Origin: a virus
DNA: 31,512 nt
Virus record (IMG/VR): IMGVR_UViG_3300048837_001109
Coordinates: 1-31,512 of that record
Reading direction: 5' to 3' (one strand)
Below, piece after piece: positions 1,667 through 23,699 of the stretch. Within the stretch, counting starts at the first letter, position 1, and each line of letters opens with the position of its first letter. The notes beneath the pieces are model-generated. The model saw nothing but the letters and a program-made list of their open reading frames with translations. It ran no database searches and was not told the DNA's origin. The position numbers and the translations under genes were made by a program.

Positions 1667-1701
1667 CGCCGCACCATTCCCACGCGGGTGCCCGATGTCC
1701 A
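1667..1701 (-). promoter_or_regulatory. Promoter-like element, copy 1 (sigma-factor gene)
   Basis: On the minus strand TGGACA (1701-1696), a 17-bp spacer, then AATGGT (1678-1673), then GCGGCG and the ATG at 1666. The element shares GGGAATGGTGCG with the copies at 4786-4819 and 23671-23699. The ATG falls where transcription should begin, so a leaderless mRNA is inferred. Confidence 0.6.
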
Positions 1702-1711
1702 CCGGTCCGGT

Positions 1712-2233
1712 TCATTGTCCGGCCGCATGGCCATGCACGGGACAATCCTCGCTGGGGCCGCAGGGGCGGCTCCTGGGACGCCGCAGCTTCTCGGCGAGCT
1801 TCCGGCCCCATCCGCGCTTGCCCCACGGCAGGAAGGGCTTGAGCCACATCAGCGAGCGAATGCAGCCGCAGCCGCGATAGACCTTGTCCTCGCCGATCTG
1901 CTGCAGGAACACCCACAGGGCGAGCTTGAAGCCGCGGCGAACGCGGCGAGGGAACGGCACGCCCTCCCAGGTGAGCCTGACCTGGACCGTCCCGTCCTCG
2001 GCCGGCCACCAGCCCTCCGGGCAGACCGACGCCGGATCCCGCAAGCGCTTGCCCAGTCGCGGATCGGGCTTGCCGATCTCGCACCCAGCCGCGCGAGGGC
2101 AGGTGAGGCACATCGCCATCCGCTCCTCGGTGAGCTTCGCGCGGTCGGCGATCGTCGGCCCCGTGGGGGTCTCGGGCTCCGAGCCGGCGGAGCGCTTCAC
2201 ACGGTTCTCGGCACAGCACGGTTTGCTGCTCAT
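1712..2233 (-). CDS. Cys-rich protein, unknown function
   Basis: 173 residues from ATG 2233, which overlaps the upstream stop as ATGA and has GGAGGG in front. Two Cys clusters stand out: CLTCPRAAGC in the middle with a following PASVCPEGWW, and YRGCGCI later. Another cluster (RPCGPSEDCPVHGH) sits close to the C-terminus. The spacing suggests zinc binding at two sites. The segment between is rich in basic and aromatic residues (FKLALWVFLQQ, MWLKPFLPWGKRGWGRK). It is the last gene before the sigma factor and closely follows a run of putative virion proteins. I recognise the N-terminal CxxCP...CP.GWW pattern from phage hypothetical proteins but know no function for it. Confidence 0.7.
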   Translation of the reverse strand: MSSKPCCAENRVKRSAGSEPETPTGPTIADRAKLTEERMAMCLTCPRAAGCEIGKPDPRLGKRLRDPASVCPEGWWPAEDGTVQVRLTWEGVPFPRRVRRGFKLALWVFLQQIGEDKVYRGCGCIRSLMWLKPFLPWGKRGWGRKLAEKLRRPRSRPCGPSEDCPVHGHAAGQ

Positions 2234-3135
2234 CCACACCCTCCGGTGCACTTGGTCGGCAGCCCGGGCTGCGTGACCGTGATGGTGACCTGCCAGTCGA
2301 CCTTCTCCCCACACGTGCCACTGCCGCACGAGTTGTCGAGCGTGCCCTGCTGCCAGCCGGCGGTCCCTTCGTACCCCTCGCAGTCCCACTCCTCGGTGTA
2401 GTACTGCGTCACGCCGCCAGGAGCTCCGCCGCAGAAGTAGTACCCGGTCACGTCGGTGTTGCTAGCGACGCTCTCGATCTGCGGCGGACAAATGTCCTCG
2501 TTTGGGAAGAAGCTGGTCGGACCGGTCGTGGTGGTGAACCAGTTGTACACGCCGGGGGAGACTCGATCGAGTGTCTCAATGACCCGCGTCCAGGTCCCGA
2601 CATATGACCCGGGCACACCCTCGGTGAACGACCACGACCAGGTGTAGGTCTCGATGAACTCCCGCCGCGCGTCGTTGGAGCCATACCAGATGTGCCGGAC
2701 CGTCTCGCCCGATCCCGACACGGTCGAGCCCGACTCGACGCAGCAGCATCCGGGGAACTCATCGAACTCGAGCGGGCAGATGTGCGAGGTGATGCTCGAA
2801 ATCCGCGGGCAGCTCTCGTCGCAGGTGCAGCAGTCAGGGTGCTGGTCCTCGTTCCCGGGAGCGCCGATGTCGAGGTAGATGTCGCCTGATCCGGGCGAGT
2901 AGGGCTCGGCATCGGAGCGGATCTTGAAGCACCGCCCCGCCTCGCCCCCGACATACATGTGCGCGCACTCGGGCGCCTTGCCGGGGCTGAAGTAGACGTT
3001 CGGCCCCTCGTAGTCCTCCCCGCACGGCTCAGCCAGGGCGAAGTCGCCGCAGCACGTGCACCGCGCGAACTTCCCATCGGGGAGCTTGATGAACTTCCCC
3101 GTCGCGGAGTTCTTCTTGAAAGAGCCGCCGGCCAT
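2230..3135 (-). CDS. Cysteine-rich putative virion protein
   Basis: 301 residues from ATG 3135, with a distant GGAGG. It has 21 cysteines, many as adjacent pairs or triples (RCTCC, DCCTC, GCCCVE), and many Gly, Ser, Thr and aromatic residues, typical of an extracellular or virion-exposed beta protein held by disulfides or metal. No signal peptide is visible, which fits a virion component rather than a Sec-exported protein. It sits between two putative structural genes and its stop overlaps the next start as ATGA. Tail-tip or fibre attachment is a reasonable guess from position only. I do not recognise a named family. Confidence 0.65.
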   Translation of the reverse strand: MAGGSFKKNSATGKFIKLPDGKFARCTCCGDFALAEPCGEDYEGPNVYFSPGKAPECAHMYVGGEAGRCFKIRSDAEPYSPGSGDIYLDIGAPGNEDQHPDCCTCDESCPRISSITSHICPLEFDEFPGCCCVESGSTVSGSGETVRHIWYGSNDARREFIETYTWSWSFTEGVPGSYVGTWTRVIETLDRVSPGVYNWFTTTTGPTSFFPNEDICPPQIESVASNTDVTGYYFCGGAPGGVTQYYTEEWDCEGYEGTAGWQQGTLDNSCGSGTCGEKVDWQVTITVTQPGLPTKCTGGCG

Positions 3136-3138
3136 GGA

Positions 3139-3969
3139 TCAGCACGCCTCCGCATCGAGCAGGGCGTTGGGGTCGAACAGCTGCAGCACGCCATCCTCGT
3201 CGTAGTACGCCGTGCCGGGAATGTCGGTCCCGCCCGCGAGATAGGGGGTATCGGGCTGGAATCGCTTCTTGGGAGCCTTGTCGGTGCCGATCACCACGCC
3301 ATAGAGGTCCTTCACGGTGTAGGTGAAGGTGCAGGTGGTGGAGCTGCTGCCGGCCGAGCCTCCGGTCTGCGTCACCAGCACGGTGAACAGATCGCCCGGA
3401 GTGCGTCCGCCGCGGATCCGCACCATGCAGAGCGCGACGCCCTCGGTCGTCCGGTCGGCCTCATCCTGCTTCCAGATGATCTGAAGCGGGCCCCGGGAGC
3501 TGCTGATCGGCATCGTGCCCGTCTGGGCCTTGGCGGCGGTGTGGAGCTCGTCATCGATCTCCACGAGTGCGATCGCCACCCCGGAGACGCAGCAGCGGCC
3601 GATCATCCCGGCCGGGATCGCCTCAGTGGTGACCACCAGCTCGAGGTCGCCCGCCGCGGGTGTGACGCCGCGGTAGCGCAGGCGCTCGGCGAACCCGTCG
3701 AGGTTCCCCGGGATGGTGTCCATCCCGACGTCGTAATCGTGGGGCAGGAGGGCGGGGCGCTCCAGTGTGAGAATCCGGTGCCGGCCGATCGGCTCCTCCG
3801 TCGCGTTGAGCACCAGGGCGTGCTGGAAGTGCTCGCGGGCCTCGGGCGTGCCCGCGCCGGTGCCGCGGAGCCTGTTCTGCCGCGCGGCCTCCATGGCGGC
3901 GTTCCAGTCGGGAGCGTCGATCCGGAGCGGCTGGCCGCTGATAACTTTGCGGAAGGTCGGGCCTGGCAC
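3139..3969 (-). CDS. Putative phage structural protein
   Basis: 276 residues. The start is GTG 3969, chosen because GGAG lies 6 nt before it and overlaps the upstream stop. The N-terminus (TFRKVISGQPLRIDAPDWNA) has the form seen at the start of a recurrent phage protein that begins with '(K/R)..PGQPLRI....WN.....A'. The middle is mixed alpha/beta. The C-terminal ~60 residues are beta-rich (TFTYTVKDLYGVVIGTDKAP) and resemble a small virion-surface domain. It is the second gene of the transcript starting at 4785. A minor tail or fibre-base role fits its position downstream of the tape measure, but this is inference. Confidence 0.65.
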   Translation of the reverse strand: MPGPTFRKVISGQPLRIDAPDWNAAMEAARQNRLRGTGAGTPEAREHFQHALVLNATEEPIGRHRILTLERPALLPHDYDVGMDTIPGNLDGFAERLRYRGVTPAAGDLELVVTTEAIPAGMIGRCCVSGVAIALVEIDDELHTAAKAQTGTMPISSSRGPLQIIWKQDEADRTTEGVALCMVRIRGGRTPGDLFTVLVTQTGGSAGSSSTTCTFTYTVKDLYGVVIGTDKAPKKRFQPDTPYLAGGTDIPGTAYYDEDGVLQLFDPNALLDAEAC

Positions 3970-3972
3970 AGA

Positions 3973-4785
3973 TCACTCCAGATCGAGAGCATCGAAGTCG
4001 GAGGGGTCGTACACTCGCTCTTCGTACCACGCGATCGGAACCATGGTGAGCTGATTGGACTCTTCAGACTGGCGATAGAGCACCCAGATCACAGAATGGC
4101 CGCCATAGTTCACGCCGGTGAACTCGCCGGCGATCGTGCCGCCGGAGACGTTCGGCCGACACGAGAATCGGTAGGTGACCTCCCAATCGCCCTCGCTGCG
4201 CTTCTGGCCCGTGACATCTACCAGCAGGGCCTCGCCGGCCGCGAACCCGCGCCACTCGTCATCGTTGATCGTGCCCGTCGCGGCGTACCCGGCCGATTCG
4301 GCTGCGGCAATGTCCGCATTGGCGATGTAGCGTGTGAGGGTCAAGGCCCACTGAGGGTCGACCACGTCCGCGCCTTCGATCTTCCCATCGACGACGTTGA
4401 TCGCCTGCTTGAAGTCCGGCGCCCCTGAGGACTGCTGCACCGTCTCCTTCGATGTCTTGATGTGCGCCGTGCCGCCGCCCGTTGTCCAGGACTCGCGGAT
4501 GTCGCCTGTCTCGGGCCGCAGCCCGCCGCCGCCCGAGATGGCGTAGCGCACTGTGACGCGGAAGATCCTGTCGCTGTTGGGCTCCGGACCCACCGTGACG
4601 TCATCGAGCGGCCAGTCGCGGTAGTCAGCCGGAGCAACGGCCAGCACCGCCGCCTCGACGTCCTCGGCCAGGTCCGGCCCGTTGTCGGCGACGTCAGATT
4701 CGACCTGGTAGTCGAACTCCGCAGAGCGGTTCTTCCGCGAGACGCGGGGACCGGTGATCATGTCGGTGCGCACGACGAGGGCCAT
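3973..4785 (-). CDS. Conserved phage protein, putative baseplate/tail-tip component
   Basis: 270 residues from ATG 4785. The N-terminus resembles the 'SDD..A...L...AP..Y.......V.VEPL' domain of a recurrent unnamed protein in planctomycete-type phages. The remainder carries its other hallmarks: GGTAHIKTS, APDFKQAINVVDGKIEGADV, TGTINDDEWRGFAAGEALLV and GDWEVTYRFSCRPNV. It lies just after the tape measure and moron and heads a four-gene run to 1712, so a tail-tip or baseplate role is likely by position. There is no ribosome-binding site. The ATG lies 6 nt after a promoter-like AATGGT, which makes a leaderless transcript the simplest reading. The molecular function is unknown. Confidence 0.7.
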   Translation of the reverse strand: MALVVRTDMITGPRVSRKNRSAEFDYQVESDVADNGPDLAEDVEAAVLAVAPADYRDWPLDDVTVGPEPNSDRIFRVTVRYAISGGGGLRPETGDIRESWTTGGGTAHIKTSKETVQQSSGAPDFKQAINVVDGKIEGADVVDPQWALTLTRYIANADIAAAESAGYAATGTINDDEWRGFAAGEALLVDVTGQKRSEGDWEVTYRFSCRPNVSGGTIAGEFTGVNYGGHSVIWVLYRQSEESNQLTMVPIAWYEERVYDPSDFDALDLE

Positions 4786-4819
4786 GCGCGCACCATTCCC
4801 CGCTCGGCGTTCAAGTCAA
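4786..4819 (-). promoter_or_regulatory. Promoter-like element, copy 2 (virion/tail-tip genes)
   Basis: On the minus strand TTGACT (4819-4814), a 16-bp spacer, AATGGT (4797-4792), then GCGCGC and the ATG at 4785. It lies in the short gap after the stop at 4834. It shares CTTGAC and GGGAATGGTGCGCGC with copy 3. The 6-nt distance to ATG predicts a leaderless mRNA. Confidence 0.65.
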
Positions 4820-4833
4820 GCGGGCAGACGCGG

Positions 4834-5856
4834 TCACCTTTGGATCATCGACGCGGGGATGCGGACCCGGATTCTGCCATCGCCGTCGACATACACGCCC
4901 GGGAGATCAAGATCGAGGTGTTCCGCGCGATCAATCGGGACCTGGAACACCAGCACATCCCGCAGCTTCTCGCCTGGGTAGATGGGCCCGACCCTCACGC
5001 TCCCGATCGGCCGACTGCTCAGGCTGCCGAAGTCCACCAGGCGGTAGGTGTTGCCGAAGTTGTCCGTTAGCCGCTGCTCGTCGTCGGCGTTGAACGAGAG
5101 GTAGTCGATCTTCTTCGTCTGGCTCACGTTGGCGATCTCGATCTCGATCCGCAGCAGGGCCTCGTCGGTCTGTCGCTCCTCAGTGCGACCGAGGAATGGC
5201 GTAAGAGGAACGTGGCCGATCTTGGCTTCCAGGATCCGGAGCTCTACATCGCCGTGCCGGATCACGGAGTCGGCGCTGGGCCACTGCTCGTTCTGCGAAG
5301 GCAGCACGCCGGCGGTGCCGGCTTTGGACGCGGCCGCCGCCCTCTCGGCCGCCTCATTGGCCGCCCGGGTGATTCCGCCCACCAGCAGGCCCGTCGTGGC
5401 GACAACCACCAGCAGAGCAAGCCCGCTGATCGCGGAGCCGGCGATCGGTAGTCCGATGCTCGAGCCCTTCCGTGTGATCGCGACGACGAGCCCGACGAGC
5501 CCAAGCAGCAAGCCGAGGGCCGAGAGGGGCACGCTGATCAGGTTCACCAGCGGGATCCAGCAGATCAGGAACGCCAGAATCCCGAGAATGATCGACGCAA
5601 CCCCCAGACTGCTTCCCCGCCGCGGCATCGCCACATTGAGCACCGGTGCGCCTCGCTGGTGCCCTTGCTCAATCGGCGGCGGCGAGATGTTCTGGTGCGG
5701 TGGAGCGATCGTCTTTGGCGACGCGGGCTGGACGCGAGAGACCATCACGCCCTTCCGGTTCGCCAAGCTCTGAGCCTCATCGGACGTCTTCGCCTCCACG
5801 GCCAGCTCGATGTCCTCGCCGGTGTCCGCGTCTGCGCCTGTAACTATGAACCTCAT
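4834..5856 (-). CDS. Host-like membrane protein (DUF4190-like plus DUF4352-like); probable moron
   Basis: 340 residues from ATG 5856, with GGGAGG at good spacing. Residues 1-45 form a short soluble domain (TGADADTGEDIELAVEAK...) of a type seen in planctomycete cell proteins. Residues ~80-160 hold three hydrophobic segments with the repeat-like look of DUF4190 (SLGVASIILGILAFLICWIP; GLVVAITRKGSSIGLPIAG). The C-terminal ~150 residues form a beta domain like DUF4352 (ALLRIEIEIANVSQTKKIDY; DNFGNTYRLVD). This is a bacterial membrane or lipoprotein-type architecture, not a virion one. It is a single gene between the tape measure and the promoter at 4786-4819, and it has its own sigma70-like promoter, the classic layout of a moron. 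Surface modification or superinfection exclusion would be guesses. Confidence 0.7.
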   Translation of the reverse strand: MRFIVTGADADTGEDIELAVEAKTSDEAQSLANRKGVMVSRVQPASPKTIAPPHQNISPPPIEQGHQRGAPVLNVAMPRRGSSLGVASIILGILAFLICWIPLVNLISVPLSALGLLLGLVGLVVAITRKGSSIGLPIAGSAISGLALLVVVATTGLLVGGITRAANEAAERAAAASKAGTAGVLPSQNEQWPSADSVIRHGDVELRILEAKIGHVPLTPFLGRTEERQTDEALLRIEIEIANVSQTKKIDYLSFNADDEQRLTDNFGNTYRLVDFGSLSSRPIGSVRVGPIYPGEKLRDVLVFQVPIDRAEHLDLDLPGVYVDGDGRIRVRIPASMIQR

Positions 5857-5872
5857 GGGGACCTCCCACCCC

Positions 5873-5901
5873 AGACTACCTGATCTCGGGGATAGGAGCA
5901 A
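5873..5901 (-). promoter_or_regulatory. sigma70-like promoter for the membrane gene
   Basis: On the minus strand TTGCTC (5901-5896), a 17-bp spacer, then TAGTCT (5878-5873), followed by GGGAGG and the ATG at 5856. An inverted pair GATCTC (5882-5887) and GAGATC (5911-5916) brackets the -35 and could be an operator. The -10 differs from the AATGGT of the other phage elements and looks more like a host promoter. Confidence 0.45.
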
Positions 5902-5958
5902 GGGGAACATGAGATCGTGCCGTCTCAGGATCGCCGCGGAAGTGATGTCGGACCGGCG

Positions 5959-7812: not shown

Positions 7813-7814
7813 GA

Positions 7815-8333: not shown

Positions 8334-8354
8334 GCCGGCACCCTATCCCTTCGA

Positions 8355-8588: not shown

Positions 8589-8593
8589 GAGCC

Positions 8594-9190: not shown

Positions 9191-9227
9191 GAGCGTTCTC
9201 GGAAGCGGGTGCGTGCGTGAGCGTCAA

Positions 9228-10502: not shown

Positions 10503-10567
10503 GGTGTACCTCGGAGGGGATGGGGAGAGGGAGCGGGGGAATCCAGGAGGGAACGGGAGGGGTGACG

Positions 10568-10602: not shown

Positions 10603-10627
10603 ACTTAGGTCGCCCCATGCCTGCCGA

Positions 10628-11050: not shown

Positions 11051-11105
11051 GGATCACACTCCTGGGTGCCCGGTCTGGGCTTGGCTTGGTTTGGCGATGG
11101 CGGAA

Positions 11106-11119: not shown

Positions 11120-11122
11120 GGG

Positions 11123-12354: not shown

Positions 12355-12375
12355 CACGCTCACGCTTCAAGAGGC

Positions 12376-12741: not shown

Positions 12742-12799
12742 TGGAACCCTCCTGGGTCGGCTGGTGTACCTGTCCCGCCCCGCCCTTCAAGAAACACGC

Positions 12800-12821
12800 C
12801 CCCGGCGTTCTCACGCCGGGG
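12800..12821 (-). terminator. Hairpin after the capsid gene
   Basis: Perfect 9-bp arms CCCCGGCGT (12800-12808) and ACGCCGGGG (12813-12821) with a TCTC loop. On the minus strand GCGTGTTTCTTG follows, so it resembles an intrinsic terminator. It lies between the capsid stop (12847) and the decoration start (12741). Confidence 0.7.
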
Positions 12822-12846
12822 ACGGTTGAGTCGAATCAGGGGAGGA

Positions 12847-15111: not shown

Positions 15112-16628
15112 TCGTCTTCCTCCTGGCCGTCGGAGTCGTCGTCCGTCTCTTCGCCTTCATCAACGCCGGCCGGCACCGGGCGGCCGGTGTCGTCGTGCTG
15201 CGTCGGGACCGGGATCCCAAGCTCCCGCATCCGCGCCAGCTCGCGGGCACGCTGCTGCAGCGACTCCTCCCAATCGAGGCCCTCGCGGGCGTACTCGATC
15301 GCGAGCGTGGTGGTGTTGGACGCCAGGCGGGTCGCCTGGGCGCTCGCCTCTTTCTGCGGGTCGACGTGCCCGACCCCGTCCCAGAACCACTGGTGAGCGG
15401 GCAGGATTTCAAAGCTCTTCCGCAGGGACTGCGGGAGGTAGCCCTCGATCAGCGCCGCCTCATTGAGCCATTCAGCGAGCAGGGCATCGAGAACGACCAG
15501 CTCGCAGTCATCCTGCTCAACCCAGAGCGACGCCTCATAGACCTGGTAGTCGAGGCGGCCGCTGGCGTAGTTGTACTTGCTCGAGTCCCCCGCGGCCTTG
15601 TTGTACGGCATGTTGAAGCAGCGGCCGATCTCCGCGATCAGCGTCGCCTTCGCGCCGGGATAGGTCGTGGTGGGCTGCTCGGACTTGAACCCCGACAGCT
15701 CCCACCCCTCGGGGAGGATGGTGGTCTCGTTGGGGGCGATGTCGATGACGTCAAACGGCACCGCCTGCTCGTTCTCGTTCACCGCGGAGGACTGCGTCTT
15801 CAGAACGCGGGCGGTGTTCGCCGCCGCCTCCGCGGCCGCGACGGTCGCGAGCGTGTACCGCCGCAGCATCGCAAACAGCGGGAGCGCGGGAGTGATCTCT
15901 GGCACGCCGCGGTTCTGGCCCTCGCGGTCCCGGCGGAACCAGTGAATCACCTTCTCGGCCGGCACGCGCTCGAAGTCGTCGGGCAGATAGTGTGCGACGT
16001 CCGAGCCGGGGTGCTGCTTCAGGATGTGGTAGACGCTCGGGTTGCCGAACTCGTCGAACTCGATGCCGTCGACCACGTTGGGGTTGTGGAGCACGCCCGA
16101 GGAGCTCTCCAGGCTGGTGACCTGGTCGGCCTCCACGCCCCGCAGATCGAGCTTCACCGGGTGGCGGAGCCGCTCGTTGGAGCTCATCACCGCGAAGGCC
16201 TCGCCCGCCTCAGCCTTGGCGATCCGCATCAGCCGGAGCTTGGAGGCCAGCCGGGTCGCCTTCGCCCAGAGGGCGAACTCCCGCTGCACGAACTTGCGGT
16301 CCTGCGTGCTGAGTCCCGAGTCGTCGCGGATGTGCAGCCGCGGCCCGGTCCCGATGGTGTCGTTGGCGAGCGTGAGCAGGATCCCGCGGGCGTAGCAGTT
16401 GTTCGCCGCCTCATACCTCGCCCGCTCACGCAGGCGCTTGCGCACCCAGGGATTCGCGGCCGCGTTCGCCGAGAGGGCGTCGGCGGCGGCCCAGTGCAGC
16501 GAGTTCGCGTCCGAGTCCTGGGCGGCATCGAACGAAGCCCGGAGGGACCGCGGCTTGCCGGCCGTCAGGACGCGCGGCGAGGCGGCCTCGCGGCCGCGCT
16601 TGGCGGATTGTGCTGCTCGCTTTGCCAT
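15108..16628 (-). CDS. Portal protein (lambda gpB type)
   Basis: 506 residues from ATG 16628. The sequence has the standard lambda-type portal marks: RKRLRERARYEAANNCYARG near the start, DTIGTGPRLHI, the YHILKQHPG segment, VIHWFRRDREGQNRGVPEIT, and later ATLIAEIGRCFNMPYNKAAG followed by YNYASGRLDYQVYE. The C-terminus is strongly acidic (EETDDDSDGQEEDE). The portal is the 12-fold ring through which terminase pumps DNA. Its stop overlaps the protease-capsid start. The preceding gene is a small protein typical of this position. Terminase itself is ~15 kb away at the left edge. Confidence 0.93.
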   Translation of the reverse strand: MAKRAAQSAKRGREAASPRVLTAGKPRSLRASFDAAQDSDANSLHWAAADALSANAAANPWVRKRLRERARYEAANNCYARGILLTLANDTIGTGPRLHIRDDSGLSTQDRKFVQREFALWAKATRLASKLRLMRIAKAEAGEAFAVMSSNERLRHPVKLDLRGVEADQVTSLESSSGVLHNPNVVDGIEFDEFGNPSVYHILKQHPGSDVAHYLPDDFERVPAEKVIHWFRRDREGQNRGVPEITPALPLFAMLRRYTLATVAAAEAAANTARVLKTQSSAVNENEQAVPFDVIDIAPNETTILPEGWELSGFKSEQPTTTYPGAKATLIAEIGRCFNMPYNKAAGDSSKYNYASGRLDYQVYEASLWVEQDDCELVVLDALLAEWLNEAALIEGYLPQSLRKSFEILPAHQWFWDGVGHVDPQKEASAQATRLASNTTTLAIEYAREGLDWEESLQQRARELARMRELGIPVPTQHDDTGRPVPAGVDEGEETDDDSDGQEEDE

Positions 16629-16629
16629 G

Positions 16630-16842
16630 TCAGTAAGCCGACGGGGGCGGGGGACGGTGGACCAAGCGCCGAAGCGGGCTTCCGCCGCTCAGCGCGTCGT
16701 TCTCGGAGAGGTGCTTGTCCGCGGCGATCTGATCAGCCGGCGAGTGCTGCTCCGTGGAGGCCCCGGCCTCGCTCTCGGAGTGCTTGCGCGGTCCGACGGC
16801 GTTCTCCCGGATCGCGTCGCGGATCGTCTCGTCAGTGGCCAT
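16630..16842 (-). CDS. Small pre-portal protein (gpW position)
   Basis: 70 residues from ATG 16842. It has the recurring pattern of short proteins next to phage portals: IRDAIRENAVGPRKH, then an acidic/polar stretch EQHSPADQIAADKHL, then PLRRLVHRPPPP. Its place before the portal matches the lambda gpW site, but the sequence is not clearly gpW and the role is unknown. There is no ribosome-binding site, and a 164-bp non-coding region with three iterons lies upstream. It appears to be the first gene of the head operon. Confidence 0.65.
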   Translation of the reverse strand: MATDETIRDAIRENAVGPRKHSESEAGASTEQHSPADQIAADKHLSENDALSGGSPLRRLVHRPPPPSAY

Positions 16843-17006
16843 GCGGCAAAGAGAGGGCGCGGAGCGTCACGATGCGCGTCGATGGGGCTCGCGCGACCGC
16901 ACGGAGTTCCACCGGTGGACTTGTGGCGCAATCTGAGGGGTTCGGCGGCGTACCTGAGGGGTGCGGCCGCTTATCTGAGGGGTTGACCCCGGAGACAGCA
17001 GGTCCG
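16843..17006 (-). promoter_or_regulatory. Control region of the head operon
   Basis: 164 bp without a gene between the zinc-ribbon gene and the pre-portal gene. It contains the 21-bp iterons described separately. No convincing -35/-10 pair is visible on the minus strand, which would fit a promoter that needs an activator. The start at 16842 lacks a ribosome-binding site. Confidence 0.5.
16933..16983. repeat. Three direct repeats with a 21-bp period
   Basis: CTGAGGGGT occurs at 16933-16941, 16954-16962 and 16975-16983, exactly 21 bp apart. The spacer halves are also related (TCGGCGGCGTAC and GCGGCCGCTTAT). On the minus strand the core reads ACCCCTCAG. A 21-bp period places each copy on the same face of the helix, as in arrays bound by a regulator, an origin protein or a packaging protein. 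Confidence 0.7.
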
Positions 17007-17339
17007 CTAGACCGACCGCTCCCGGGTGCTCATCATCCGCCCGCAGTTGCGGCACTCACGGCGGCGGAAGACCGAGCCGTCGCGATGGGGCCGCGTGTAG
17101 TACACGTGGAAGTGTCCGCAGCCGCAGTTGCGGCACCGAAGCCCCCTGGGCTCCGAGGCCGGGGTGGGATCGGGCTCGGCCTCCACGTCGAGCTTGGGAG
17201 GCTGGGCGGGCGACGGGGTCGGGGGGGTGCCGGAGGGCGCGAGCGAGAACCCCGAGGCCTCCTCGGGCGGCCGCACGATCCGCAGGGAATCTGTCGGCCG
17301 CTCTCCCGCCGGCTGCATGCGCGTGGTCGCCTCCATCAT
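17007..17339 (-). CDS. Zinc-ribbon protein, possible regulator
   Basis: 110 residues from ATG 17339. ATG 17336 is equally possible, since GAGG lies just upstream. Residues 1-65 are low-complexity and rich in Pro, Glu, Ala and Thr. Residues ~68-110 form a compact zinc ribbon: CRNCGCGHFHVYYTRPHRDG, then RRRECRNCGRMMSTRE. Two CxxC pairs separated by ~24 residues and the ending RRR.C..CG....T.E are the pattern of NrdR-like and phage transcription-factor zinc ribbons. It immediately precedes the iteron region of the head operon, which makes it a candidate to act there. That is inference only. Confidence 0.65.
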   Translation of the reverse strand: MMEATTRMQPAGERPTDSLRIVRPPEEASGFSLAPSGTPPTPSPAQPPKLDVEAEPDPTPASEPRGLRCRNCGCGHFHVYYTRPHRDGSVFRRRECRNCGRMMSTRERSV

Positions 17340-17344
17340 CGGCC

Positions 17345-18622
17345 TCAAAGAACAATGCGGCGGCGGCCGCGAAGATCTCGGCGCGAGCCGGAGCCCGCGC
17401 CCCCTCCGCCCGGGGTCACCGGCACCTTCCACACCACGGTGTAGTAGGGCCGGCGGTCGGCCTCGCTGTTGTTGCGGCTGGCGTATTGGCCGGTGGTTGC
17501 ACCTCCGGTCCGCCAGTGCTTGAGCGAGAGCGTCGTGCCCAGCGCGGCCTGGAACGTCGCCGCCATCTCGGCGTTGCTGACCGTGAACGCCCCGGTGGAG
17601 CTGGGGTTGGGCCAGGAGAATCCGTTGCCCGGTTCATCGGCCGCGATGTCGCTCCCGACGCCCTGTGCACCAGCGGTGTTCCACGGCAGCACCCCGACCA
17701 TGGCCTCCTCGCCATCAAACTCCATCGTCCGGTGGTTGTGGCTGCACCCGTAAATGCCAAAGACCTCGTCGAGCTCCTCACAGTCAAACTCGGTGAGGAC
17801 CTTCCGCACCAGGTGCGTCTGACCCGTCGTCCCCACCGAGGTGCAGTACTTATGCATCGTGACGGACACGACCTCCGCCCCCTCGGGGATCTGGCGATCC
17901 CCGAAGATCGGGTCCGTGAGGTCGATCCGCTCAAGCGCGGCCCGCACCTGGCCGGAGCTGCCGTTGATGATGACCGTCTGCCCGCCGCCATTGACTGCGT
18001 TGGCCGACGATGCGTTGATGGTGCAATCCTCGGTGACCATGAACCGGCTGGAGTACTCCGTGCCGGGGGTCGGGCTGTCGGGCTCCTCCACCCAGTCAAA
18101 GTCGAGCTCCCACGATGCAGGGTCGATCACCTTGAAGCCGACCTCGCCGGTGCTGTCATCTTCAAGCTGCAGCAGCAACGCGGATGGACCGTTGCGGATC
18201 ATGTACTGCACGATCGCATTGAGCCCCGCGCCGCTCAGCTCGTACACGGCCGCGCCCGCCAGGTCGCCTCCACTGAACATCGGCGGCTCAGAGAGCCCGG
18301 TCCCCGAGCCGGTGCTCCACGATGCGGCCTCGACGGCCGAGATGCCCGTGATGCTCGAGCGCCGGACCTCCACCCCCCGCGTGCCCGGAGACGGCGAGTC
18401 CGCAGTGATCTCAAACCGCAGCTTGGCGTTCGCGACGAGCACCCGCGAGAGATTGTCGGCATCAACCGCCGCCTGCACATCCCAGAACACCAGCGGCCGC
18501 CGGCGGAACGTCCCCTCGCTTGCGCGGAGTTCGGTCACGTCGAGCTGCGGGATGTCGAAGAGCTCGTACAGGCCATTGAATGTGGCCGGCGCGAGAGCCG
18601 TCACGGTTCCGCTCGTTGCCAT
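17345..18622 (-). CDS. Beta-rich putative virion surface protein
   Basis: 425 residues from ATG 18622 with GGAGG upstream. The protein is built of beta-rich modules. The first ~190 residues (LDVTELRASEGTFRRRPLVF, LVANAKLRFEIT, FKVIDPASWELDFDW) and the second ~190 residues (VTMHKYCTSVG, HLVRKVLTEFD, VGVLPWNTAGAQG, TLSLKHWRTGG) have the look of two jelly-roll or stalk domains similar in style to DNRLRE domains. The end is very basic (GSGSRRDLRGRRRIVL). It lies after the SGNH hydrolase with a 10-bp gap. A fibre, spike or adhesin role is inferred from composition and neighbours. Confidence 0.6.
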   Translation of the reverse strand: MATSGTVTALAPATFNGLYELFDIPQLDVTELRASEGTFRRRPLVFWDVQAAVDADNLSRVLVANAKLRFEITADSPSPGTRGVEVRRSSITGISAVEAASWSTGSGTGLSEPPMFSGGDLAGAAVYELSGAGLNAIVQYMIRNGPSALLLQLEDDSTGEVGFKVIDPASWELDFDWVEEPDSPTPGTEYSSRFMVTEDCTINASSANAVNGGGQTVIINGSSGQVRAALERIDLTDPIFGDRQIPEGAEVVSVTMHKYCTSVGTTGQTHLVRKVLTEFDCEELDEVFGIYGCSHNHRTMEFDGEEAMVGVLPWNTAGAQGVGSDIAADEPGNGFSWPNPSSTGAFTVSNAEMAATFQAALGTTLSLKHWRTGGATTGQYASRNNSEADRRPYYTVVWKVPVTPGGGGAGSGSRRDLRGRRRIVL

Positions 18623-18632
18623 GGTGCCTCCG

Positions 18633-20057
18633 TTAGCCCGACTCCAGGATCGCAGAGACCACCACGCGGCCCCATGCCTGATACCCCGCCTCGCTCAAGT
18701 GGGCCTCATCGAGGTCCGGCGCGACGGGGTTGTTGTAATACGCCTCCTGAGTCTCGGTGAAGAAGGGCGAGCCCGCGTCGCGCGTCGCAACAGTGAAGGT
18801 GTCGCGGAACTGCTCGGCGGTCTTGAGTGCATACCCATTCACGCCGGCGACGTTCGCGGCGTAATCCGCATCGGCGCACAGCGACTCCATCGCGGCCACC
18901 ATGGTGGAGCCGACGAAGCCCGCCTGCGGAGAGACCGCCTGGGGGTGATAGCCGCCGATCAGGAAGTACAGATCCGACTCGGCATACCCGCACACCGCGA
19001 CCCAGATGTCCCTCAGCCGGTTGATGATCGACGCGGTGTTGATCACGAACCCGCCCTCGGTGTTGCTGGGCACGCCGACTTCGTTCCCGTTGCCGAAGCC
19101 GTCGCCGCGGCCGTACAGGATCGCATCGGCGGTGTCCTGGGCGTCGTTGCCGCCCATGAGGATCTGCACCAGCAGGACCGGCGCGAGCGCGTCGCCGTTG
19201 GCCTTCACCTGCCGCGAGGCCATGAAGCGGAAGTACTCGGCGAGCGCCGCATCGGTGCAGTTGTTCGCCAGCATGTCCGCGATGGTGCGCGCCGACTGCT
19301 CGCCCGCGTACGCGAAGGTGCTCACGCGGCATCCGCGGTAGGCGTCGGAATCCTCGACCGACTGGTAGAGGATCCCCACCGAGCCGCTGATGTTTCCGCC
19401 GCTGTAGCGTTGCAGTCGGAAGTACAGGCCCGTCCCATCCGTCGGGGCCATCGCGGCGAACAGCTTGGAGACGGTGTGGAAGCCCTCAGTTCCCGGGAGC
19501 GCCAGTGTCGAGGCCGATCCGGGATGCACGGTTGCCCCGGCGATGCCGCCACCCAGATCCGTGTACGCGGCCGGGTTGAGCGCTGTCGCCGCGCCGCTCG
19601 CCGGGATGTAGACCCGAGCGGAGTACCGCAGCTCGCGGGCGATGTTGAGCGGATGCTGGGAGCGGATGCTGTATCCCGAGAGCGCGTTCTCGGTGCTCGA
19701 CCAGTTGGTGATGTAGTCTCCAAAGCAGGGGAAGTACGCAGGCGACTGCGGCAGCAGCGCAGCCTGGAACGCCGAGGGGGCAGACGAGAAGTCTCCGCCC
19801 ACAGAGAGCCCCACCGCCCCGCCCGCGCTGACATCGCCCGACACCGCTCCCCATCCGCCGGTTGTGCCGGCGAAGGGCATGATCGCCGCGCCCCAGCAGC
19901 CCAGCGCTGCCGACCATGCGTAGGTCATCCCCTGCGCGTGGCCGGTGACCTGGTTGCGCTTCATGTTCGAATCTCCGATGATGGCGATATCAACGCGCCG
20001 ACGCTGCGCAGCGCGGCGAAACCCCCCGAATGCCGTGCTGTTGATGATGGCCGTCAC
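18633..20057 (-). CDS. SGNH/GDSL-type hydrolase (putative virion or secreted esterase)
   Basis: 474 residues from GTG 20057, chosen because GAGGAG lies 6 nt upstream and the frame before it is shadow. Catalytic blocks are visible in order: block I IAIIGDSN with Ser30, block III MGGNDAQD (Gly-Asn-Asp at ~302-305), and block V LDEAHLSEAGY with Asp450 and His453. The insert between blocks I and III is unusually long (~270 residues, partly beta). SGNH enzymes remove acetyl or acyl groups from sugars. In a phage tail-adjacent gene this suggests modification of capsule, exopolysaccharide or cell wall during entry. There is no signal peptide. The neighbours are a virion-like protein and a secreted protein. 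Confidence 0.8.
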   Translation of the reverse strand: MTAIINSTAFGGFRRAAQRRRVDIAIIGDSNMKRNQVTGHAQGMTYAWSAALGCWGAAIMPFAGTTGGWGAVSGDVSAGGAVGLSVGGDFSSAPSAFQAALLPQSPAYFPCFGDYITNWSSTENALSGYSIRSQHPLNIARELRYSARVYIPASGAATALNPAAYTDLGGGIAGATVHPGSASTLALPGTEGFHTVSKLFAAMAPTDGTGLYFRLQRYSGGNISGSVGILYQSVEDSDAYRGCRVSTFAYAGEQSARTIADMLANNCTDAALAEYFRFMASRQVKANGDALAPVLLVQILMGGNDAQDTADAILYGRGDGFGNGNEVGVPSNTEGGFVINTASIINRLRDIWVAVCGYAESDLYFLIGGYHPQAVSPQAGFVGSTMVAAMESLCADADYAANVAGVNGYALKTAEQFRDTFTVATRDAGSPFFTETQEAYYNNPVAPDLDEAHLSEAGYQAWGRVVVSAILESG

Positions 20058-20067
20058 GTCGAGCTCC

Positions 20068-20973
20068 TCAGTTCCAAAGCAGCACCCACCGCGCGCCGCG
20101 CTTCCGCGCCGCGTCGATGAGTGAGGGGTCGTTCTTCTCGTGATGCGTGTACGCCCACCCGCCGGCCCCCCCCCACTCCGCCGCAGCCTGATCCATCGCC
20201 GCGAGCACCTGGACCGGCGTGTAGATGAAGTCGTCGTGCACATACCCCGCGAGCACGGGGTAGCTCAGGTGCTTGTTCGTCGTCTGCGCCGCGAGGCCGA
20301 TCGTCTTGTCAACGCCCGTCGCGTGGTTGATGACCGGCCCGTCAAAGCCCGCTTCCCTCAACGCCCAGACGGTCCATTCGATCGCGTGCTCGGCCCACGG
20401 CCGCACCGTCGCCTTGCCGCTGTAGGTCTCGTACGACCACCGCTCATGGTCGATCAGCCAGGTGATCTGGTCGATCTCCCCCGCCGTCATCCCCAGCGTG
20501 CCGCGCAGGTCGCGGTAGGCGAGCCGCAGAATGTCCCGCATCTTGTTGGCCCACTCCGGGCCGAACGGTTCGGGCTGGCCTTCAACGCCCGGGAAGTCAA
20601 TGAACGGGTTGACGAGCTGGATCACCCCGCCATCGCCGATCGCCCGCACCCGGCGGATCACGTTGCGCGGGTCGGAGTACCGCACCTGCTGCTTGTCGCC
20701 GTCGTCGTCTACCAGCCACTCGTGGTGGAAGTTCGCCCACTTCGCGCCGTCAAGCTCGGGGCCTTTGCCCCACGAGTTGTTGTTGATGCGGAGCTTGGGG
20801 ATGCTCAGTACATCGCCCTTGTTCGGTGGGTGCCAGCGCACCACCTTCGTCTCGGCAGCCACGGGCATCGTGGTGGGGGGGAGTCCTCCCGCGGGTGCTG
20901 CATCGGGCACCGCCACGAGCGTGATCGCCAGCAGCGACATGAGAAGCGTAACGATGGGTGTCAGGAATCGCAT
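20068..20973 (-). CDS. Secreted protein of unknown fold
   Basis: 301 residues. ATG 20973 is chosen over an upstream start because it gives a clean signal peptide (RFLTPIVTLLMSLLAITLVA, cleavage near PDAAPA). The mature part is alpha/beta: PKLRINNNSWGKG, the segment GGVIQLVNPFIDFPG, LAYRDLRGTLGMTAGEID, GYVHDDFIYTPVQVLAAMDQ, ending HHEKNDPSLIDAARKRGARW. The repeated pattern of strands and helices would suit a TIM-barrel hydrolase, but I see no catalytic motif I can name. The start lacks a clear ribosome-binding site and lies after a 75-bp gap with a direct repeat. It could be an endolysin-like or polysaccharide-active enzyme. Confidence 0.6.
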   Translation of the reverse strand: MRFLTPIVTLLMSLLAITLVAVPDAAPAGGLPPTTMPVAAETKVVRWHPPNKGDVLSIPKLRINNNSWGKGPELDGAKWANFHHEWLVDDDGDKQQVRYSDPRNVIRRVRAIGDGGVIQLVNPFIDFPGVEGQPEPFGPEWANKMRDILRLAYRDLRGTLGMTAGEIDQITWLIDHERWSYETYSGKATVRPWAEHAIEWTVWALREAGFDGPVINHATGVDKTIGLAAQTTNKHLSYPVLAGYVHDDFIYTPVQVLAAMDQAAAEWGGAGGWAYTHHEKNDPSLIDAARKRGARWVLLWN

Positions 20974-21011
20974 GGTCAATTGGTTCTCACGCAAGCAGCC
21001 AAGGCCGTACA

Positions 21012-21047
21012 CAGAGGTCACAGAGACGGAGCGCAGAGGTCACAGAG
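21012..21047. repeat. Direct repeat in the gap before the secreted protein gene
   Basis: CAGAGGTCACAGAG occurs twice, at 21012-21025 and 21034-21047, with a 22-bp period. It lies in the short gap between the stop at 21048 and the start at 20973. Similar CACAGAG-type tracts are frequent in intergenic DNA of planctomycetes, so it may be host-derived or a regulator site. Confidence 0.6.
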
Positions 21048-21413
21048 TTACACCCGTGGCTCCCACCACGCGATGTGCGGAGCCTTGTTCCCCTCGCGGT
21101 GCAGGTATGTCACTCTTTTGCTCTGCTTCGTCGCATATTCGATTTCGCGAGCAGTGCTCTCGCCGATGTAGCCGTTCTCGTTCACAACAAAGAGTTCATC
21201 AGCGATGTCGATCTTCCGAAGGTGCAACTGATCCATAGCCTCAGCAACGCCCTCGTACTCTGCCAGATGATGCTCTCTGTCGCTGTAGCACTTCGGGAGC
21301 AGGTGGCATCCGAGCGCGATAGCCCCAGCCTTCTCGATGATCCACATCGCCACGGCCATCGTCTCGATAAAGCGAGTTGAACCCGACACTGCAACGATCG
21401 TTGGTCGCTTCAT
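21048..21413 (-). CDS. Nucleoside 2-deoxyribosyltransferase-like protein
   Basis: 121 residues from ATG 21413, supported by GGAGG at correct spacing and the upstream stop 2 bases away. The N-terminal IVAVSGSTRF is the nucleotide-binding 'CGSTRF'-like turn. The middle has LHLRKIDIADELFVVNENGY and the C-terminal part IGESTAREIEYATKQSKRVTYL. This order and these residues match the nucleoside 2-deoxyribosyltransferase-like family widely found in phages, which cleaves or transfers deoxyribose or acts in nucleotide salvage and signalling. It may shape the nucleotide pool in infected cells. It lies among secreted and lysis genes, not replication genes, so it may be an accessory cargo gene. Confidence 0.75.
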   Translation of the reverse strand: MKRPTIVAVSGSTRFIETMAVAMWIIEKAGAIALGCHLLPKCYSDREHHLAEYEGVAEAMDQLHLRKIDIADELFVVNENGYIGESTAREIEYATKQSKRVTYLHREGNKAPHIAWWEPRV

Positions 21414-21415
21414 AC

Positions 21416-22345
21416 TCACCTCCCTCCAAACCACTCACTCAGGAACGCGAAGATGTCCATGGATTGACAGCCGGCAACGCCATCGCAGGCTCCAGCACGA
21501 TCGGACCCGATGAACCAATCCGTGATGAACGCAAAGATGTCGTTGACGTTCGTCACCGCGTCCCGGTTGTAGTTGCCAACGTTCGGGTTCCTCGATACCT
21601 CCACCCGCATCGTCACCCACCCGCCGAACCAGCCGTGTCCGTCCTCGATCAGCGGCTCAACGTCGGTGAAGTAGTCGATCCGAAGGGTGAGGATCGCGTC
21701 CATCGGGTGGAAGCCATGCTGGCCCTCAAACACCCACGGCTCGTAACAGCCGGGTCCGCAGTCGGACAAGGGACCCCACCAGTTCGCCGCGTTCCAGTCC
21801 ATCGTGACGTTGATGGTCGCGCCCGCTTGAAACTCGTCCCATGTCGGCGTGTTGGGGAGGCGATCAGGCCAGTCGTAGGTGTACCCGTCGCATGTGCCCC
21901 ACTGCCCCACCTTGATGCCGAAGGTGTCAATGCTCGGGTTCCATGCCCGGCGGCATCCCGACACCTCCACCATGCGGAGCGTGCGGTCTTCTGCCCAGAG
22001 CATCGTGCACCACGGCTCCCACAGATCGCCCACACCCTGCCCCCACGAGAACAGGTAGTCAGAGCATGGGCTGTTGCTCCACGTCTGGAACTGCGCCACC
22101 TGATCGTTCACCGGGCAACCCTCGGGCCAGTGGTCATAAGCCCACGAGTCGGGCCGGTCATAGACGCGGAACGGCCTTCCCACCTGCTCGCGGACGCACG
22201 ATGGGTCGCTCGTGTTGTTGCGGGACATTGCCGTCGTCATCGCCGAGACGGTGATGGTGTCGCCCTGCGCAAACACCGGCGCGGCCACGCTGACGCCGAC
22301 GATGAGCGAGAGGATCGAGTAGATGTACGGGCGGATCTGCGTCAT
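21416..22345 (-). CDS. Secreted protein with C-terminal dockerin-like EF-hand repeats
   Basis: 309 residues from ATG 22345, overlapping the upstream stop as ATGA with AGGAG in front. A signal peptide (YIYSILSLIVGVSVAAPVFA) is followed by a Cys- and Trp-rich beta domain of ~220 residues (PEGCPVND; CTMLWAEDRTLRMVEVSGC; WGTCDGYTYDW; FEGQHGFHPMDA). The last ~50 residues hold two dockerin-type repeats: NYNRDAVTNVNDIFAFITDW and GVAGCQSMDIFAFLSEWFGG, with the calcium-loop residues N-N-D-N-D in the first. Such dockerin ends are a hallmark of secreted Phycisphaerales proteins. It sits in the lysis region of a phage and is a strong sign of gene transfer from the host. Confidence 0.8.
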   Translation of the reverse strand: MTQIRPYIYSILSLIVGVSVAAPVFAQGDTITVSAMTTAMSRNNTSDPSCVREQVGRPFRVYDRPDSWAYDHWPEGCPVNDQVAQFQTWSNSPCSDYLFSWGQGVGDLWEPWCTMLWAEDRTLRMVEVSGCRRAWNPSIDTFGIKVGQWGTCDGYTYDWPDRLPNTPTWDEFQAGATINVTMDWNAANWWGPLSDCGPGCYEPWVFEGQHGFHPMDAILTLRIDYFTDVEPLIEDGHGWFGGWVTMRVEVSRNPNVGNYNRDAVTNVNDIFAFITDWFIGSDRAGACDGVAGCQSMDIFAFLSEWFGGR

Positions 22346-22485
22346 GGACGGACTCCTGTGTTGATGACGATGTGCCCACCCTCAAACGCCCTCACGACCG
22401 CAATCCCGCCCAGACCCACCAGCACCGCCGCGATCGCCAGGCGGAGCAGGATCAGCGTGAGCATCCGGGCCCGGCGGGCGTTCAT
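22342..22485 (-). CDS. Small single-span membrane protein (lysis region)
   Basis: 47 residues from ATG 22485, overlapping the upstream stop by one base and with GGAGAG in front. A basic N-terminus (NARRAR) precedes one strong membrane helix (MLTLILLRLAIAAVLVGLGG), then a short tail (VVRAFEGGHIVINTGVRP). Size, topology and position directly after a holin-like gene suit a second holin, an antiholin or a lysis accessory protein. No family is recognised. Confidence 0.65.
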   Translation of the reverse strand: MNARRARMLTLILLRLAIAAVLVGLGGIAVVRAFEGGHIVINTGVRP

Positions 22486-22793
22486 CACTCTCTCCGTTGC
22501 TCGATCGTGCTCTTGGCGATGTCGACGATCTCGCGGGCCATCTGCACCGTCGCCTTCGCGGCCTCGCTGCCGGCCGCGTGAGACGCCGCTGCACGCTCCG
22601 CAGAGGAAGACGATGCCCGGTTGTTCTCGCTCATCGCGACGTGGGACTGCACTACGTCCTTCAGGATGTACTTCCATGCGAAGTACATGGCGATAAGCCA
22701 TCCGCCCGGCTTGCCGACAAAGCCCAACAGCTCGATCACAACCGCCATCTCGGACGGTCCCTTCGCCACGGTGGCAAGTAGCAGAGTGATCAT
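22485..22793 (-). CDS. Holin-like membrane protein
   Basis: 102 residues from ATG 22793 with AGGAGG 8 nt upstream. One or two membrane helices occupy residues 1-46 (ITLLLATVAKGPSEMAVVIE; GGWLIAMYFAWKYILKDVV). The rest is a charged helical tail (SENNRASSSSAERAAASHAA; ATVQMAREIVDIAKS) likely to form a coiled coil in the cytoplasm. Small size, few helices and a charged tail, in a cluster of small membrane and lipoprotein genes, are typical of holins, which permeabilise the inner membrane at lysis. No named holin family is evident. Confidence 0.55.
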   Translation of the reverse strand: MITLLLATVAKGPSEMAVVIELLGFVGKPGGWLIAMYFAWKYILKDVVQSHVAMSENNRASSSSAERAAASHAAGSEAAKATVQMAREIVDIAKSTIEQRRE

Positions 22794-22831
22794 CTCGAAC
22801 GCCTCCTGCGTGGTCTGGGTGCTTGGAAAGT

Positions 22832-22859
22832 CCCGGGCAGGCCGGTAGGCCCGCCCCGG
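22832..22859 (-). terminator. Hairpin before the holin-like gene
   Basis: An imperfect stem: outer CCGGG/CCCGG, inner GGCC/GGCC around a GGTA loop. On the minus strand ACTTTCC follows. It lies between the stop at 22873 and the start at 22793 and may partly end the upstream transcript. Confidence 0.5.
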
Positions 22860-22872
22860 ACTGGTGGTCGAT

Positions 22873-23205
22873 TCAGGCCAGGGCGCCGATCGCGATATTC
22901 AGCAGGACGGTGCTCACGCGGTGCACGGTCGAGTTGATGAACTCGCGGACCTCGCGGGCGGCGGCGATCCCGTACGCGGCCTCGAGGAAGCGGAGTGAGT
23001 TCACCACGCTGGCGAGCTCGGACTTCGCCGCGGCGTCTTCGGGGTTCAGCAGGAGCGACGCGTGCAGCACCGCCGCGCGGGCGAGGGAGCGCTCAATGAG
23101 CTCCCGGTCCTGGTGCGTCACCTTGGCGAGCATCCCGTCGGCTCGTGTCCGCAGGTCGGCCAGGACCGCCTGGGCTTCGGTCTCCATGAGGGCTTTGAGG
23201 TCCAT
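22873..23205 (-). CDS. Small helical protein, unknown
   Basis: 110 residues from ATG 23205 with GGAAGGA upstream. The protein is almost wholly alpha-helical: LKALMETEAQAVLADLRTRA, LIERSLARAAVLHASLLL, LASVVNSLRFLEAAYGIAAA, and a hydrophobic C-terminal end VLLNIAIGALA that could contact a membrane. It lies between a lipoprotein gene and the holin-like gene, so it may belong to the lysis or membrane set. No signal peptide or known motif is visible. Confidence 0.65.
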   Translation of the reverse strand: MDLKALMETEAQAVLADLRTRADGMLAKVTHQDRELIERSLARAAVLHASLLLNPEDAAAKSELASVVNSLRFLEAAYGIAAAREVREFINSTVHRVSTVLLNIAIGALA

Positions 23206-23287
23206 CGGGGTCCTTCCGGGTTCAGGGGGTGGGGTGGAGTGTGAGGGAGGGAAGGGAACCAGAACGCCGCGACTTCAGGCGGCCCGC

Positions 23288-23310
23288 GGGCCCGGCACAC
23301 GACCGGGCCC
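23288..23310. terminator. GC hairpin in the gap after the lipoprotein gene
   Basis: 8-bp perfect arms GGGCCCGG (23288-23295) and CCGGGCCC (23303-23310) with a 7-nt loop, in the 129-bp gap 23206-23334. No T-run follows on the minus strand, so its role is uncertain. The rest of the gap holds the ribosome-binding site for the gene at 23205 and G-rich sequence. Confidence 0.4.
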
Positions 23311-23334
23311 GGCTCCAGGGAAGCCGGCACGGAC

Positions 23335-23622
23335 TCACGGAGAACGGCTGTTGGAGTCGGCGTCCTGTTTGGCCTCGCTGACAGCGCGACGCCAGGCGTG
23401 AAGCTCGCCCAGGTAGCTCGCCCGCTGCTCAGCGGTGAGCGAGGCGTCGTCGATGACGTAACGCTCGTACCGGGGCCCGATGGTCTGATTCGCGGCCGTG
23501 TCGCTCGCGGAGACGAGCGTCTCATACCCGCTCCCGCCGGCACAGCCCGCGGTGCCGAGCGTCAGAATCGTGGCCGCGGCCGCGAGAACAATGAGCCCAA
23601 GGGCGGAACGTGGAGTGCGCAT
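23335..23622 (-). CDS. Small lipoprotein (possible outer spanin-like)
   Basis: 95 residues from ATG 23622 with AGGAG 8 nt upstream. An N-terminal signal (MRTPRSALGLIVLAAAATIL) ends in the lipobox LGTAGC, which makes Cys27 a likely lipidation site. The mature part is ~68 residues, charged and helical (LTAEQRASYLGELHAWRRAV). It starts the transcript of the lysis and secreted region, 48 nt after promoter-like copy 3. A small lipoprotein beside holin-like genes suggests an outer spanin (Rz1) role for a Gram-negative-type envelope, but no partner Rz with a signal anchor is obvious. Confidence 0.65.
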   Translation of the reverse strand: MRTPRSALGLIVLAAAATILTLGTAGCAGGSGYETLVSASDTAANQTIGPRYERYVIDDASLTAEQRASYLGELHAWRRAVSEAKQDADSNSRSP

Positions 23623-23670
23623 CGACGGGTCTCCTGAGTGGTGAGGGGTGCGGTTTGGGTCAACGCGCGC

Positions 23671-23699
23671 ACCATTCCCACCACCAGGCCCCGGGTCAA
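23671..23699 (-). promoter_or_regulatory. Promoter-like element, copy 3 (lysis/secreted region)
   Basis: On the minus strand TTGACC (23699-23694), a 17-bp spacer, AATGGT (23676-23671), then GCGCGC. The -35 overlaps the stop of the upstream gene. Unlike copies 1 and 2, no ATG follows at 6 nt. A leader of ~48 nt with a normal ribosome-binding site leads to the ATG at 23622. Confidence 0.65.

What the first reader, a model, noticed from the sequence alone, without database searches (positions are those of the whole stretch)
1667..23699. Shared promoter-like element in three places, two predicted to make leaderless mRNAs
TTGACT/TTGACC/TGGACA, a 16- or 17-bp spacer, then AATGGT followed by GCGCGC or GCGGCG occurs at 1673-1701, 4792-4819 and 23671-23699. 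All copies are on the minus strand and each is placed directly before a gene or operon. In the first two the ATG starts exactly 6 nt after the -10, where transcription normally begins, and no ribosome-binding site exists. Most other genes in the window do have one. Copy 3 has a 48-nt leader and a normal site. The long identity GGGAATGGTGCG, extending past the -10, is more than chance would give.
Basis: partly seen in the sequence, partly recalled or inferred. Interest (0 to 1): 0.75.

Follow-up and report, generated by a model that had tools for sequence, protein, structure and literature searches.

The report
Phage sigma factor's own promoter set
A virus of planctomycete bacteria repeats one promoter-like DNA signal in front of three gene blocks, one of which makes the virus's own sigma factor (a protein that tells RNA polymerase where to start); this suggests the virus switches on its late genes, and its own switch, through a private signal that in two places ends exactly at the start codon.

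Summary
Exactly three copies of TTGAC-like/16-17 bp/GGGAATGGTGCG exist in the 31.5-kb record, all on the minus strand and all intergenic (intergenic DNA is 4.7% of the window). They score 24-26 bits; the next-best site scores 13.5. Identity is confined to the promoter positions.

Its -35-reading helix (RERVRQIE) is identical to that of host sigma factors. Its -10-reading helix has lost the conserved WW and Q. This fits a promoter with a normal TTGAC -35 and a non-host -10. The motif is not a host signal: AATGGT promoters are not enriched in 13 Phycisphaerales genomes, and it is not an upstream element in 160 related phage or prophage loci, none of which has a sigma hit.

Best reading: the cognate low-copy promoter of the phage sigma, driving sigma itself (positive feedback), a lysis/head block and a tail block. 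Two copies predict leaderless mRNAs (ATG at +1). 'No ribosome-binding site' is overstated: the motif itself contains GGTG at ideal SD spacing. The record is a fragment (TerL cut at base 1), so the promoter set is incomplete. Nothing has been shown experimentally.

The parts
1673..1701 (-). Copy 1: -35 TGGACA (1701-1696), 17-bp spacer, -10 AATGGT (1678-1673); predicted +1 = A1666 of the ATG
   Evidence: Sequence; motif score 24.1 bits; intergenic
950..1666 (-). Phage RNA polymerase sigma factor, 238 aa, regions 2 and 4, no region 3 detected; host-like region 4.2 (RERVRQIE), divergent region 2.4 (TYMGVGISRDVRR)
   Evidence: Pfam Sigma70_r4 9.7e-9; PHROG 351 2.8e-24; TIGR02937 1e-16 over its cut-off; alignments
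4792..4819 (-). Copy 2: -35 TTGACT (4819-4814), 16-bp spacer, -10 AATGGT (4797-4792); predicted +1 = A4785 of the ATG
   Evidence: Sequence; 25.7 bits; intergenic
3973..4785 (-). Conserved tail-module gene behind copy 2; in relatives its homologue usually follows the tape-measure gene directly, often with an ordinary RBS
   Evidence: tblastn homologues in 36-38 of 160 relatives
4834..5856 (-). Gene present here between tape measure and 3973-4785 and absent from relatives (accessory or moron-like; start re-set to ATG 5856, which has a strong SD)
   Evidence: No hit in 160 relatives; SD
23671..23699 (-). Copy 3: -35 TTGACC (23699-23694, overlapping the stop codon of the gene upstream), 17-bp spacer, -10 AATGGT; predicted +1 = G23664, 42-nt leader with SD AGGAG
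   Evidence: Sequence; 24.9 bits; SD
23335..23622 (-). First gene behind copy 3: small lipoprotein-like protein heading a block of small membrane and secreted proteins that leads to portal (15108-16628) and capsid protein/protease (12847-15111)
   Evidence: ORFs; portal PHROG 21 2.2e-55 and capsid protein/protease PHROG 4523 4.7e-57
1..704 (-). TerS-like gene (441-704) and N-terminus of terminase large subunit (448 to below 1), cut by the record end; downstream of the sigma gene
   Evidence: tblastn of L012 TerL, 41% identity, E 3e-23; sequence

Best explanation
The three elements are promoters for the phage's own sigma factor, encoded at 950-1666. The sigma's region 4.2 would read an ordinary TTGAC -35 and its altered region 2 would read the unusual -10 block GGGAATGGTGCG, so host RNA polymerase is redirected to the phage's late genes. 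Copy 3 starts the lysis/head block, copy 2 restarts transcription in the tail module after an inserted gene, and copy 1 transcribes the sigma gene itself, giving positive feedback. At copies 1 and 2 the -10 ends 6 nt before the ATG, so transcription should start on the A of the ATG and give leaderless mRNAs; copy 3 gives a 42-nt leader with a normal ribosome-binding site. Shown: the elements, their placement, the sigma gene, the helix differences. Inferred: recognition by this sigma, late timing, leaderless starts.
For: Three intergenic copies only, scoring far above background. Identity stops outside the -35 and -10 positions: spacers and flanks are unrelated, so this is conserved function, not a recent duplication. 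The gene behind copy 1 is a sigma factor. Its region 4.2 RERVRQIE is identical to host group 1/2 sigmas, while region 2.4 TYMGVGISRDVRR replaces host TYASWWIKQAIKR: both W lost, Q to R. From textbook sigma-70 biology, these are the -35 reader and the -10 reader/melter. No consensus sigma-70 promoter is found in the window. In 13 Phycisphaerales genomes TTGAC-N-AATGGT is not enriched over its reversed control (10 v 6). Related loci have no sigma hit (in 30 whole viral records only weak sub-threshold matches) and no copy of the element upstream of genes, so both appear particular to this phage.
Against: No transcript data. No second phage with this sigma was found, so sigma and motif cannot be shown to co-vary. 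Copy 1's -35 (TGGACA) is a poorer match. The first sigma molecules must come from another source (read-through or host holoenzyme). GGTG in the motif could serve as a weak SD. The record is incomplete, so further copies or a host-type early promoter upstream cannot be excluded.
Confidence: 0.66

Rival explanations
1. The elements are promoters read by a host sigma factor (primary or ECF), perhaps with a phage activator, and the phage sigma acts elsewhere.
For: The -35 is the ordinary TTGAC, and AATGGT keeps the A and final T of the -10 that sigma-70 depends on most. Host sigmas have the same region 4.2.
Against: AATGGT-type promoters are not enriched in 13 Phycisphaerales genomes. Hits of the longer motif in 392 Planctomycetota genomes include many coding matches that read D-M-x-G-N-x-W-E-W, plus one palindromic repeat. 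Three of six -10 positions are non-consensus and GC-rich.
Confidence: 0.18
2. The shared block is a translation signal: an extended ribosome-binding site whose GGTG pairs with the 16S tail 7 nt before the ATG, on ordinary read-through mRNA.
For: GGTG gives -3.5 kcal/mol at optimal aligned spacing in copies 1 and 2.
Against: Copy 3 has the same block more than 42 nt from its start codon, with a separate AGGAG. Most other genes in the window use AGGAG/GGAGG-type sites, not GGTG alone. It does not explain the TTGAC boxes at 16-17 bp.
Confidence: 0.06
3. The block is an operator or other protein-binding site (repressor, packaging or recombination site) rather than a promoter.
For: Conservation of GGG before and GCG after the hexamer is longer than most -10 elements. 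An HTH protein is encoded at 28543-29307.
Against: Not palindromic. Same strand and immediately before genes each time. -35-like box with spacing varying by only 1 bp. Exact 6-nt offset to ATG twice.
Confidence: 0.06
4. Chance repetition in a GC-rich genome.
For: Seven 12-mers occur at least three times on this strand.
Against: None of the other triplets checked lies just upstream of gene starts in all three copies. One 12-mer in three of 35 upstream regions arises in 1 of 3000 simulations, before counting the -35 boxes, and the motif scores are an isolated cluster.
Confidence: 0.03

Closest known systems
Phage 7-11 and phiEco32 sigma factors and their promoters (PMC4331800)
   Same: A phage-encoded sigma factor with a few highly conserved, low-copy intergenic promoters placed before structural genes and before the sigma gene itself; such promoters are typically well conserved but few.
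   Different: 7-11 has 10 motif copies, distinct middle/late classes and an anti-sigma gene. Here three copies are seen in an incomplete genome, no anti-sigma was identified, and the sigma gene lies at the end of the tail block rather than in the functional (early/middle) cluster. No sequence test against those sigmas beyond PHROG 351 was run.
T4 gp55 and SPO1 gp28/gp33-34 late and middle sigma systems (own knowledge)
   Same: A phage sigma redirects host RNA polymerase to middle or late genes through a phage-specific -10.
   Different: T4 late promoters lack a -35 and need gp33 and the sliding clamp; here a TTGAC -35 is kept.
Leaderless phage mRNAs, e.g. lambda cI from PRM (own knowledge; AR9 paper PMC5312081 remarks that phage transcripts are often leaderless)
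   Same: -10 placed so that +1 is the A of the ATG.
   Different: Here predicted for a sigma gene and a tail gene sharing one promoter element; not mapped.
Host group 1/2 sigma factors of Phycisphaerales
   Same: Region 4.2 helix identical over RERVRQIE.
   Different: Region 2.4 diverged, no region 3 detected, 238 aa; best similarity is weak and mostly local (E 2e-6 at best).

Membership tests
Sigma-70 family RNA polymerase sigma factor (gene 950-1666) | Matches curated family models over the family cut-off | tested here: met
   TIGR02937 61 bits v 42.9 cut-off; Sigma70_r4 35.1 v 24.1
Sigma-70 family RNA polymerase sigma factor (gene 950-1666) | Both region 2 and region 4 present | tested here: met
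   Region 4 over cut-off; region 2 below its Pfam cut-off (19.1 v 24 bits, E 0.0012) but aligned in the RpoS comparisons and matched by other solved sigma factors
Sigma-70 family RNA polymerase sigma factor (gene 950-1666) | Binds core RNA polymerase and directs initiation | not testable with these tools
   Needs in vitro transcription
Phage sigma plus cognate low-copy promoter system (7-11/phiEco32 type) | Phage encodes a sigma factor | tested here: met
   PHROG 351 RNA polymerase sigma factor, 2.8e-24
Phage sigma plus cognate low-copy promoter system (7-11/phiEco32 type) | Few well-conserved intergenic motifs on the late strand, including one before the sigma gene | tested here: met
   Three copies, all intergenic, one before sigma
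Phage sigma plus cognate low-copy promoter system (7-11/phiEco32 type) | The sigma recognises the motif | not testable with these tools
   Only indirect: region 4.2 kept, region 2.4 changed
Phage sigma plus cognate low-copy promoter system (7-11/phiEco32 type) | Early genes read from host-type promoters | tested here: inconclusive
   No consensus sigma-70 promoter in the window, but the early end is cut off and the consensus is E. coli's
Leaderless mRNA | -10 positioned so that +1 is the start codon, without a strong SD | tested here: met
   6-nt discriminator then ATG in copies 1 and 2; only a weak GGTG
Leaderless mRNA | 5' end mapped at the start codon | not testable with these tools
   Needs primary-transcript sequencing
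Host promoter class of Phycisphaerales | Motif enriched in host genomes | tested here: not met
   TTGAC-N17/18-AATGGT: 10 hits v 6 in the reversed control over 13 genomes

The most novel reading that the evidence does not exclude
A planctomycete phage drives its late programme with a private sigma factor whose promoter is fused to the start codon, so sigma and a tail gene are made from leaderless mRNAs while the lysis/head block has a normal leader. If host ribosomes treat leaderless mRNAs differently during infection, this would give translational as well as transcriptional control from one element, with self-amplifying sigma synthesis.
Probability: 0.35. Interest if true: 0.65.

Novelty: new member of a known kind. 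Interest (0 to 1): 0.47.

Why it matters
Searches of the open-access library returned no study of promoters or transcription start sites of planctomycete phages. A sigma gene that carries its own candidate promoter gives a compact, directly testable sigma/-10 specificity pair: a normal -35 reader joined to a changed -10 reader. It also gives a test of leaderless translation in a phylum suggested, from one species, to use it (PMC5397173).

Tried and rejected
Exact-pattern scans of IMG/VR with TTGAC-N-GGGAATGGTGCG and with the leaderless layout gave 11 and 10 loci. They carry no sign of kinship to this phage, and in most the open reading frame after the motif is short or absent; taken as chance. 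Sigma protein searches: no relative in IMG/VR, none at 1e-12 in 201 genomes of the order; the phage collection gave six weak hits. GAATGGTGC in 160 related loci was scattered or lay in conserved coding DNA, not as an upstream element. Two Phycisphaerales hits of TTGAC-N-GGGAATGG overlap long open frames. Planctomycetota-wide hits include many coding matches reading D-M-x-G-N-x-W-E-W plus one interspersed palindromic repeat (that reading is my own translation of the printed matches). Searches with other phage proteins for a closer relative gave only distant ones. Predicting the sigma structure was considered and left out: without close homologues it would not decide which -10 it reads.

Full report
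WHAT IS THERE. On the minus strand they read: copy 1 TGGACA-17-AATGGT-GCGGCG-ATG; copy 2 TTGACT-16-AATGGT-GCGCGC-ATG; copy 3 TTGACC-17-AATGGT-GCGCGC-G, followed 42 nt later by ATG with AGGAG before it. The 12-mer GGGAATGGTGCG is present three times, with no one-mismatch copy on either strand.

IS IT MORE THAN CHANCE. Position is what counts. In order-2 simulations of the 35 upstream regions, one 12-mer shared by three regions arose in 1 of 3000 runs. All three copies lie wholly in intergenic DNA, which is 4.7% of the window on my gene list. With the -35 included, the copies score 24.1, 24.9 and 25.7 bits; the next site in the window scores 13.5 and the best in 20 simulated windows is 16.5 (the matrix was built from the copies themselves, so their own scores are inflated, but the gap is wide). 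Spacers and flanks are not alike, so the copies are not a recent duplication.

CONTEXT. The window is a virus record of 31,512 bases and a fragment: the terminase large subunit runs off base 1. Relatives by portal protein (up to 58% identity) are mostly contigs and MAGs of Planctomycetota, many Phycisphaerales. All assigned genes lie on the minus strand. Copy 3 follows an ATPase gene and small genes and opens a block of small membrane and secreted proteins that leads to the portal and capsid genes. Copy 2 sits after 4834-5856, a gene missing from relatives, and before a tail-module gene that in relatives usually follows the tape measure directly. Copy 1 precedes 950-1666.

THE MISSED PART. Gene 950-1666 is a sigma-70-family factor with regions 2 and 4 and no detected region 3. 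Against host sigma factors, the region 4.2 recognition helix RERVRQIE is unchanged, while region 2.4 reads TYMGVGISRDVRR where hosts have TYASWWIKQAIKR. By textbook sigma-70 biology the first reads the -35 and the second reads and melts the -10. A normal TTGAC -35 with an unusual -10 is what such a protein predicts. This is an inference from two aligned segments, not a demonstration.

HOST OR PHAGE SIGNAL. No consensus sigma-70 promoter occurs in the window. In 13 Phycisphaerales genomes TTGAC-N17/18-AATGGT occurs 10 times against 6 for the reversed control. In 392 Planctomycetota genomes the longer motif hits 28, often in a repeated coding sequence that reads D-M-x-G-N-x-W-E-W, plus one palindromic repeat. 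The 160 related loci show no upstream copies and no sigma hit; in 30 whole viral records only one weak sigma match and four sub-threshold region-4 matches were seen. Many of those records are fragments, so absence there is weak evidence. The element and the sigma are, as far as seen, particular to this phage.

LEADERLESS. With the -10 ending 6 nt before the ATG, +1 falls on the A of the ATG in copies 1 and 2. Most genes in the window have a stronger SD; a few others have none. However, the motif contains GGTG at the optimal aligned spacing (-3.5 kcal/mol), so a weak SD on longer transcripts cannot be excluded, and copy 1's gene has an in-frame GTG at 1702. A comparative study found that species with few SD genes, Planctomycetes among them (one species), show biases attributed to leaderless mRNA and/or ribosomal protein S1 (PMC5397173).

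MECHANISM AND KIND. The most likely working is a phage sigma that turns on late blocks and itself. This matches the published pattern for 7-11 and phiEco32, where phage-sigma promoters are few, well conserved and placed before the sigma gene as well (PMC4331800). It is therefore a new member of that kind by anatomy; recognition by the sigma and the 5' ends are untested.

Noticed in passing
window 705-949: Largest intergenic gap noticed (245 nt), between the sigma gene and the TerS-like gene, AT-richer in part, with a GC-rich hairpin (GGGGGGCCAGCCCCCC, about 842-827; fold z-score only -0.7) and a CCATAC...GTATGG inverted repeat; possible terminator, packaging site or further promoter.
   Followed up: partly
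window 12797-12824 (-): Strong terminator-like hairpin (12 pairs, 10 G-C) directly after the capsid protein/protease gene, in the middle of the late block.
   Followed up: no
window 16630-24674: About 8 kb of accessory genes (secreted and membrane proteins, an SGNH-hydrolase-like and a zinc-ribbon protein by eye) between the ATPase gene and the portal; those tested have no counterpart in 160 relatives. In L012 terminase sits just before portal.
   Followed up: partly
window 24932-26797: HerA/DUF87-type ATPase with repeated similar C-terminal segments; one distant viral relative (L187, 32% identity) whose held stretch shares nothing else with the window.
   Followed up: partly
G402 (Planctomycetota genome), e.g. 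C14:18-49: Interspersed perfect palindrome TTGACACCATTCCCCATGGGGAATGGTGTCAA, often near contig ends; probably a mobile-element or repeat end.
   Followed up: no
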